This document shows positions 3,951 to 4,951 of a stretch of DNA of 17,117 nucleotides, piece after piece. The position numbers and the translations under genes are program-made. Under the pieces are notes generated by a model. It made no database searches. It was not told where the DNA came from and worked only from the letters and a program-made list of their open reading frames with translations. The DNA is from Globomyces pollinis-pini (lineage: Eukaryota; Chytridiomycota; Chytridiomycetes; Rhizophydiales; Globomycetaceae). The stretch is taken from assembly GCA_025399215.1 (NCBI GenBank), contig MU621257.1:1-17117 (forward strand), read 5' to 3'. Positions within the stretch are counted from its first letter, which is position 1. Each line of letters starts with the position of its first letter.

Positions 3951-4951
3951 TTACAAGTCATCATCTAATATTAAAAAAATAAATTATTACCATCAGCATC
4001 TGGAAGTGGAGCATCTGCAGCTTGTCGTAAAGCTTCCTCCATATCTTTTTGTTGAGCGAGATCAATAGTAACTTCTGGTGGTGCAAGAGCAGGTGCAGCA
4101 ATAAATTCCAAGTTTGGATTACTAAAATATGTTAATTACTGATCATTGTAAAAAAAAGGGTTGGGTTAGTAAATCCATAAATGTATCCAAAATTTGAAAT
4201 AATAATGAAAAGTGTGCACCAGCTTTGCTGCAATATTCCATTATATGGTAGTTTAAATTAAATCCACATTAAAGAACTTACCCGACTAATTTTCTAGCCA
4301 ACCAAAGGAAAGGTTTTTCAAAGTTATAATTAGATTTAGCAGAGATATCGTAGTATTGAAGGTTCTTTTTACGGTGGAAGGTGATAGCTTTTGCTTTGAC
4401 TTTACGTTCCTTAATATCTACTTTGTTTCCACACAAGACGATTGGAATATTTTCACAAACTCTGACCAAATCACGATGCCAGTTAGGAACGTTTTTGTAA
4501 GTGATACGAGAAGTGACATCAAACATGATGATAGCACATTGACCTTGAATACTATAAAAATTAGAATATATAAATTGATTACTAGTAACCATCTCTTAAA
4601 CCACCGAATTTTTCTTGACCAGCACTATTATTAGATTGAAATTATTTACGTATCCCAAGTGTTGAAACAGATAGGACCAAAGTTAGTGTGAAAACCTATA
4701 ATAAGATAGTTTTATAATACCTAAAGGATGTACTTCAACACCTAAAGTAGCAACATATTTTTTTTCGAATTCCCCGGTTAAATGTCTTTTTACAAAGGTA
4801 GTTTTACCAGTTCCCCCATCACCGACTAACCATTGAATTAATTTGTTTTATACCTAATAATGATTGAATAAGATTGTATTGATACCTAATAATGATTGAA
4901 TAAGATTGTATTGATACCTAATACTAATTTAAAAGTAGGAGTTTCTGCCAT
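3951..4951 (-). CDS. GSP1: Ran GTPase (nuclear transport)
   Basis: Seven exons: 4918-4951, 4721-4825, 4650-4695, 4583-4624, 4282-4551, 3991-4121 and 3951-3964, giving 213 aa (Ran/Gsp1 is about 214-220). Ran drives nucleocytoplasmic transport and spindle assembly. Visible are the P-loop GDGGTGKT (13-20), the switch I to beta region [26 protein letters not shown] (switch II with the catalytic Gln), the G4 motif GNKVD, the G5 motif ISAKSNYN, and the acidic C-terminus ending DADDDDL. Introns are 25, 25, 31, 160 and 26 nt, plus a 92-nt stack of three introns inside the P-loop coding sequence (LVL|VGDGG). The 160-nt intron (4122-4281) has canonical GTAAGT and TACTAAC signals, unlike the short ones. 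The gene is divergent from VMP1. Confidence 0.97.
4826..4917 (-). other. stack of three back-to-back introns in the Ran gene
   Basis: On the minus strand, between codon 11 (plus one G) and codon 12 of Ran, lie three consecutive GT...AG units with no exon between them: 4886-4917 (32 nt), 4854-4885 (32 nt) and 4826-4853 (28 nt). Units 1 and 2 are identical over all 32 bases. Removing all 92 nt restores [12 protein letters not shown]. Retaining a 32-nt unit puts TAG in frame. Each internal junction reads TTAG|GTAT, so it is both a 3' and a 5' splice site. The exon upstream also ends in TATTAG, copying the end of the units. Confidence 0.93.

What the first reader, a model, noticed from the sequence alone, without database searches (positions are those of the whole stretch)
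4826..4917. Three introns stacked end to end in the Ran gene, two of them identical 32-nt tandem copies
Seen: codons 11 and 12 of Ran are separated by three contiguous GT...AG units of 32, 32 and 28 nt; units 1 and 2 are identical. All must go for the P-loop to be encoded. Known: juxtaposed 3'/5' sites (AG|GT) act as ratchet points in recursive splicing of very long animal introns, and tandem duplication of an AGGT-containing segment is a proposed route of intron gain. Inference: this is intron gain caught in the act, at miniature scale, and may be spliced unit by unit with zero-length exons. I do not know of stacks of ~30-nt introns described in fungi. The sequence identity implies a recent event, possibly polymorphic in copy number.
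Basis: partly seen in the sequence, partly recalled or inferred. Interest (0 to 1): 0.93.

Follow-up and report, generated by a model that had tools for sequence, protein, structure and literature searches.

The report
Stacks of tiny back-to-back introns
In a pollen-dwelling chytrid fungus, many genes are interrupted at one point not by a single intron but by several complete ~30-letter introns lying directly end to end, some of them fresh copies of their neighbour, which gives a rare view of introns multiplying.

Summary
At window 4826-4917 (minus strand) codon 12 of Ran is split by three abutting GT...AG units of 32, 32 and 28 nt; the first two are identical. The genome (18.55 Mb) is Globomyces pollinis-pini, a chytrid.

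It is no one-off. TAGGTA words recur one intron length apart (23-36 nt) at 379 places, against 36 at 9-22 nt and 29 at 37-50 nt; two intron lengths (51-64 nt) give 155. The 26 distinct loci read (of 68 pattern matches) all parse as stacks of 3-8 units inside predicted genes. URA6, in the same window, has another.

Neighbouring units are unusually alike (25 of 94 pairs above the 99% null, 0.9 expected), and the Ran unit has no copy elsewhere at up to 3 mismatches. So at least part of the stacks grew by local tandem duplication of whole introns. With zero-length exons any order of removal gives the same mRNA; I infer that growth is nearly neutral. Unit-by-unit splicing is likely, not shown: no RNA data. 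My literature listings showed nothing like it.

The parts
3951..4951 (-). Ran (Gsp1/Spi1) gene, 213 aa, 8 intron units of 32, 32, 28, 25, 25, 31, 160 and 26 nt
   Evidence: closest solved relatives yeast Gsp1 and Ran
4918..4951 (-). Ran exon 1: 11 codons plus the first base of codon 12; ends TATTAG
4886..4917 (-). stack unit 1, 32 nt, GT...AG
4854..4885 (-). stack unit 2, 32 nt, identical to unit 1
4826..4853 (-). stack unit 3, 28 nt, weakly similar to unit 2 (between the 95% and 99% null thresholds)
4850..4923 (-). 10-bp direct repeat TATTAGGTAT at exon1/unit1 (4914-4923), unit1/unit2 (4882-4891) and unit2/unit3 (4850-4859)
4122..4281 (-). 160-nt intervening sequence of Ran, needed for KLVG|NPNLEF; not read as a stack
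9071..9166 (-). second three-unit stack, in the URA6-like kinase gene (units 9137-9166, 9102-9136, 9071-9101; 30, 35, 31 nt); encodes FEKR|ICKSKF when removed
   Evidence: alignment to yeast uridylate kinase without a gap at that point
8799..8850 (-). possible two-unit stack (8826-8850, 25 nt; 8799-8825, 27 nt) near the end of the same gene
   Evidence: gene-finder prediction only

Best explanation
The Ran stack is one of many arrays of complete miniature introns (about 24-37 nt each) abutting with zero-length exons. Arrays grow, at least in part, when a whole intron is duplicated in tandem (slippage or unequal crossing-over between TAG|GTA-like boundary repeats). Units most likely are removed one by one by intron definition, each with its own donor, branch site and acceptor. 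Because no exon lies between units, any donor may pair with any later acceptor and the remaining units can still be removed, so every route ends in the same mRNA and stack size can drift almost freely. Shown: arrays, periodicity, local similarity, protein continuity. Inferred: unit-wise splicing, near-neutral growth.
For: Spacing spectrum of TAGGTA pairs over the whole genome, 14 gap lengths each: 36 (9-22 nt), 379 (23-36), 29 (37-50), 155 (51-64); the same word read backwards is flat: 277, 270, 223, 234. Three TAGGTA in a row: 105 places, 10 for the backward word; the 100 listed rows merge to 61 arrays. 26 of 26 distinct loci parse as 3-8-unit stacks in predicted genes. Unselected-by-stack contig plus window: 15 stacks in 541 intervening sequences. 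A Pfam domain runs across the stack in 6 of 10 proteins sent; alignments to yeast URA6, human gamma-tubulin and UXS1 have no gap at the stack; the deposited G. pollinis-pini protein BC833DRAFT_573857 is 301/301 identical to my reading across an 8-unit, 228-nt stack. Adjacent pairs: 25 of 94 above the 99% null, 16 above 99.9%; mean similarity 0.240 adjacent, 0.166 same stack non-adjacent, 0.118 different stacks. Branch-like YTRAY 5-20 nt before the acceptor: 53% of 168 units against 26% shuffled; 48% of 105 units from diverged pairs against 25% (highest of 500 shuffles 38%).
Against: No RNA data, so neither removal nor its order was observed. 69 of 94 adjacent pairs show no similarity beyond the 99% null, so duplication is proven only for a part. 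Boundary microhomology is not in excess (stacks: 2 with 6 or more nt, null mean 0.9, highest 4; singles 1 against 2.4). Junctions were picked by their splice words, so intact junctions there are no evidence of selection. Of 45 intervening sequences over 44 nt, only 11 tile into abutting 22-38-nt units (shuffled 0.9); with a flat length prior 4 of 121 (shuffled 0.7): long non-stack introns exist too. Last units have fewer branch-like motifs (44%).
Confidence: 0.7

Rival explanations
1. Each stack is spliced in one step as a single longer intron with internal repeats; the internal AG|GT sites are passive leftovers of duplication.
For: A 160-nt intervening sequence without stack structure exists in Ran, and 34 of 45 long intervening sequences do not tile. 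In fission yeast an intron spans tandem copies of a repeat (passages of PMC3629103; PMC4974935).
Against: Units of diverged pairs keep branch-like motifs above shuffles (48% against 25%); spacing between junctions stays within single-intron length, with a 13-fold drop at 37-50 nt.
Confidence: 0.25
2. Stacks build up by repeated insertion of unrelated introns (reverse splicing or mobile introners) at existing AG|GT boundaries.
For: 69 of 94 adjacent pairs are not detectably alike; exons after stacks start with GT more often (13 of 45 against 51 of 495, p = 0.001); in L038 the first unit and the downstream exon share GTAAAAGA, like a target-site duplication (single case).
Against: Units of different stacks are no more alike than random single introns (0.118 against 0.117); the Ran unit has no other copy at up to 3 mismatches; similarity falls with distance inside stacks.
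Confidence: 0.15
3. Assembly artefact or chance AG|GT words.
For: Identical short tandem copies can be misassembled; raw reads were not available.
Against: Most stacked units differ in sequence, and the spacing peaks and protein continuity do not fit chance. Single introns flanked by TAG and GTA exons would give only about 6 pairs genome-wide (7 and 5 of 495, none with both).
Confidence: 0.02

Closest known systems
Stwintrons (spliceosomal twin introns) of Pezizomycotina and Lipomyces
   Same: Several U2 introns form one complex intervening sequence in a fungus, removed by consecutive reactions; intron definition invoked (PMC7138796 part 1 of 5 read; passages of PMC5639578, PMC12403724).
   Different: Stwintrons are nested: the internal intron interrupts a splice element of the external one, so order is obligatory. 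Here every unit is intact, units abut, number up to 8, and order need not matter.
Recursive splicing at ratchet points (Drosophila)
   Same: Juxtaposed acceptor and donor (AG|GT).
   Different: Ratchet points predominantly reside in long introns and need a cryptic downstream exon (abstract and passages of PMC8605326); here the pieces are ~30 nt and dozens of nucleotides, not kilobases, are removed.
Dual-specific splice sites in tandem repeats (human UBC, VCX3A)
   Same: Tandem AGGT sites used as donor and acceptor; repeat expansion proposed as a route to new introns (abstract and passages of PMC10809524).
   Different: There the repeated units are coding; here they are introns, and nothing between them is coding.
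Intron gain by tandem duplication (Cryptococcus CNN00420, potato RdRp, ATP2A1)
   Same: DNA duplication raises intron number (passages of PMC2395259, and PMC4974935).
   Different: There the duplicated segment includes exon, so introns stay separated by coding sequence or arise from it; here the intron alone is copied in place.
Introners
   Same: Many introns arise by copying.
   Different: Introners spread to new genes; the Ran unit has no distant copy.

Membership tests
U2-type spliceosomal introns | GT...AG ends, branch-like motif, interrupts a conserved ORF | tested here: met
   units GT...AG; protein continuous on removal
Spliceosomal introns | removal from the transcript | not testable with these tools
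   no RNA data; deposited protein agrees with removal of one 8-unit stack
Stwintron | internal intron interrupts donor, branch site or acceptor of the external intron | tested here: not met
   units abut with intact ends
Recursive splice site / ratchet point | juxtaposed AG|GT inside one intervening sequence | tested here: met
Recursive splice site / ratchet point | regenerated donor used in a second step | not testable with these tools
   needs splicing intermediates
Recursive splice site / ratchet point | lies in a long intron | tested here: not met
   whole stack 92 nt in Ran
Introner | near-identical copies at many unrelated sites | tested here: not met
   Ran unit only: no other match at up to 3 mismatches; units of different stacks at background similarity
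Tandem-duplication intron gain | neighbouring copies with high identity | tested here: met
   units 1 and 2 identical; 25 of 94 pairs above the 99% null

The most novel reading that the evidence does not exclude
Intron stacks are a third architecture of complex intervening sequence, beside nested stwintrons and long recursive introns: minisatellites whose repeat unit is a complete, independently spliceable intron. Their splicing is order-independent, so copy number can expand and contract almost neutrally inside essential genes. By splice-site geometry each internal unit is at once a whole intron (GT...AG) and a whole exon (bounded by an acceptor and a donor), so the genome is a natural test of intron against exon definition at about 30 nt.
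Probability: 0.55. Interest if true: 0.88.

Novelty: new variant of a known kind. Interest (0 to 1): 0.82.

Why it matters
How introns multiply is an old open question because fresh cases are rare. Here one 18.55-Mb genome offers arrays from identical copies to fully diverged units, in genes as constrained as Ran and gamma-tubulin. That makes rates of intron duplication and loss, the minimum spliceable intron, splicing order, and intron against exon definition testable in one culturable fungus. It also warns annotators: the deposited protein of a relative (Globomyces sp. JEL0801, HDV02_004309) lacks the segment around the 8-unit stack, perhaps a gene-model failure.

Tried and rejected
Chance and composition: rejected by the spacing spectrum and its flat backward-word control. 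The same test on contig C1 alone (200 kb) was too small and only weakly suggestive. Introner origin for the Ran unit: rejected at up to 3 mismatches. Slippage on exon/intron microhomology as a general trigger: no excess found. A first gene-finder training (139 abutting pairs) diverged and was discarded; one search stopped on a script error. Viral-contig search for Ran relatives gave none. The rRNA family search did not complete four times, so the species rests on one 503/503 and one 301/301 protein identity. Intron length modulo 3 showed no bias (178, 165, 152 of 495).

Limits: the gene finder was trained on this genome and prefers ~29-nt introns, so its parses are not independent; the independent support is. 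The unselected set includes the window itself. For one search I used 64 of the 68 rows (four end variants dropped) and 30 of the 40 rows that showed letters (most of the others already covered; the C1 row left out). For one search I dropped 4 of 30 loci as overlapping (L036, L039, L040, L051); L033 and L034 lie in one gene, so 26 loci are 25 genes. Literature: searches gave listings only (one search showed 30 of 410 papers, 15 of 116), one library; subscription papers are missing, so absence from print is not established.

Full report
What is there. On the minus strand, Ran begins at window 4951. Exon 1 codes for [11 protein letters not shown] plus the first base of codon 12. Then follow GTATC...TTAG (32 nt), an identical copy (32 nt) and GTATA...TTAG (28 nt), and the next base continues codon 12 into [10 protein letters not shown]. 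The full model has 8 intron units (32, 32, 28, 25, 25, 31, 160, 26 nt) and gives 213 aa ending DADDDDL; each of the seven ways of keeping one or more stack units ends the protein at 21 or 22 aa. Three boundaries (exon1/unit1, unit1/unit2, unit2/unit3) share the 10-mer TATTAGGTAT.

Whose genome. The window is G000:C168:1-17117 of an 18,547,825-base assembly in 459 contigs. The D-lactate dehydrogenase-like protein of the window is identical over 503 residues to BC833DRAFT_598282 of Globomyces pollinis-pini. A second protein from another contig is identical over 301 residues to BC833DRAFT_573857 of the same species.

Introns of this genome. A gene finder trained on contig C1:1-200000 and the window predicted 69 genes with 668 introns, median 29 nt, mostly GTAA or GTAT donors and TAG acceptors. 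It also predicted 27 abutting pairs, among them runs of 3, 4 and 5 units and the URA6 stack of the window. With longer introns allowed, 15 of 541 intervening sequences were stacks (9 of two units, 4 of three, 1 of four, 1 of five); with a flat length prior 12 of 483. The window is part of that set. Scaled up, this would mean of the order of a thousand stacks in the genome, a rough extrapolation.

The test that needs no gene model. I counted pairs of the junction word TAGGTA in the whole genome at four spacings, 14 gap lengths each: 36 at 9-22 nt, 379 at 23-36, 29 at 37-50 and 155 at 51-64. The backward word is flat (277, 270, 223, 234). So the word recurs at one and at two intron lengths. Single introns that happen to be flanked by TAG and GTA exons would explain about 6 pairs. 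Three words in a row occur at 105 places, against 10 for the backward word; the 100 listed rows merge into 61 arrays, the longest with 6 fully bounded units. A related pattern gave 68 matches against 10.

Reading individual stacks. Thirty loci were fetched; 26 are distinct. In all 26 the gene finder places the match inside a predicted gene, in a stack of 3 to 8 units. Independent support: of ten such proteins sent to Pfam, six have a domain that runs across the stack (Cullin_binding, Epimerase, Aminotran_1_2, UQ_con, Tubulin, Hikeshi-like_N); two had no family, and in two the domain does not cross. URA6, gamma-tubulin and UXS1 align to solved relatives without a gap at the stack. For the GDSL-type gene L023 the deposited protein equals my reading across an 8-unit, 228-nt stack.

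Where units come from. Aligning interiors only, 25 of 94 adjacent pairs exceed the 99% null (0.9 expected) and 16 exceed 99.9% (0.1 expected), from identical pairs (Ran; C12:42111) through 27-nt arrays (C68) to background. In the parsed stacks mean similarity is 0.240 for adjacent units, 0.166 for non-adjacent units of one stack, 0.118 between stacks and 0.117 between random single introns. The Ran unit has no other copy with up to 3 mismatches. This is the signature of local tandem duplication followed by decay. For the 69 pairs without clear similarity the origin is open: old duplicates or independent insertion. Exons after stacks begin with GT in 13 of 45 cases against 51 of 495 for single introns (p = 0.001), while AG before the stack is not enriched (16 of 45 against 152 of 495, p = 0.50). 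Boundary microhomology is not in excess.

How it probably works. Each unit has a donor, an acceptor and often a branch-like motif. In units taken from the whole-genome patterns, which were not chosen for a branch site, YTRAY lies 5-20 nt before the end in 53% (shuffled 26%); in units of diverged pairs in 48% (shuffled 25%, highest of 500 shuffles 38%). If internal units were dead, this should have decayed. I therefore favour removal unit by unit. It follows from the geometry that any donor may join any later acceptor without harm, because complete introns remain; the route does not matter. That would make gain and loss of units nearly neutral, and would explain stacks in essential genes. Against certainty: no RNA, long non-stack introns exist (160 nt in Ran), and last units carry fewer motifs (44%).

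Comparison with known systems. Stwintrons are nested and ordered; ratchet points sit mainly in long introns and use a cryptic exon; dual-specific sites in UBC lie in coding repeats; described duplication gains copy exon with intron (passages, abstracts or parts, as said under Closest known systems). None of the listings I saw describes arrays of abutting miniature introns (capped lists, one open library).

Noticed in passing
window 4977-5115: A cluster of TTAGGG-like (telomere- or telo-box-like) repeats directly upstream of the Ran start, between Ran and the next gene on the plus strand.
   Followed up: no
L038 (C68), stack at 1449-1611: The first stack unit and the exon after the stack both begin GTAAAAGA, an 8-nt direct repeat across a six-unit stack; possible trace of how that intron arose.
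   Followed up: partly
stacks in C1, window and loci L022-L050: The exon after a stack starts with GT in 13 of 45 cases against 51 of 495 for single introns; cause unknown, gene-finder bias possible.
   Followed up: partly
Globomyces sp. JEL0801 protein HDV02_004309 (P0242): Deposited relative of the L023 protein lacks the segment around the 8-unit stack; perhaps a gene model that failed at the stack.
   Followed up: no
window 15958-17047 (+) and 627-2134 (-): Predicted proteins at the two ends share an SGNH-hydrolase-like stretch (LLGTNDAYLPETGYNR / LLGTDVAYRSETGYNR); the left one looks degenerate.
   Followed up: no
window 10095-10178: Short tandem 10-mers around AAACTGGTGC / ACTGGTTCGA.
   Followed up: no
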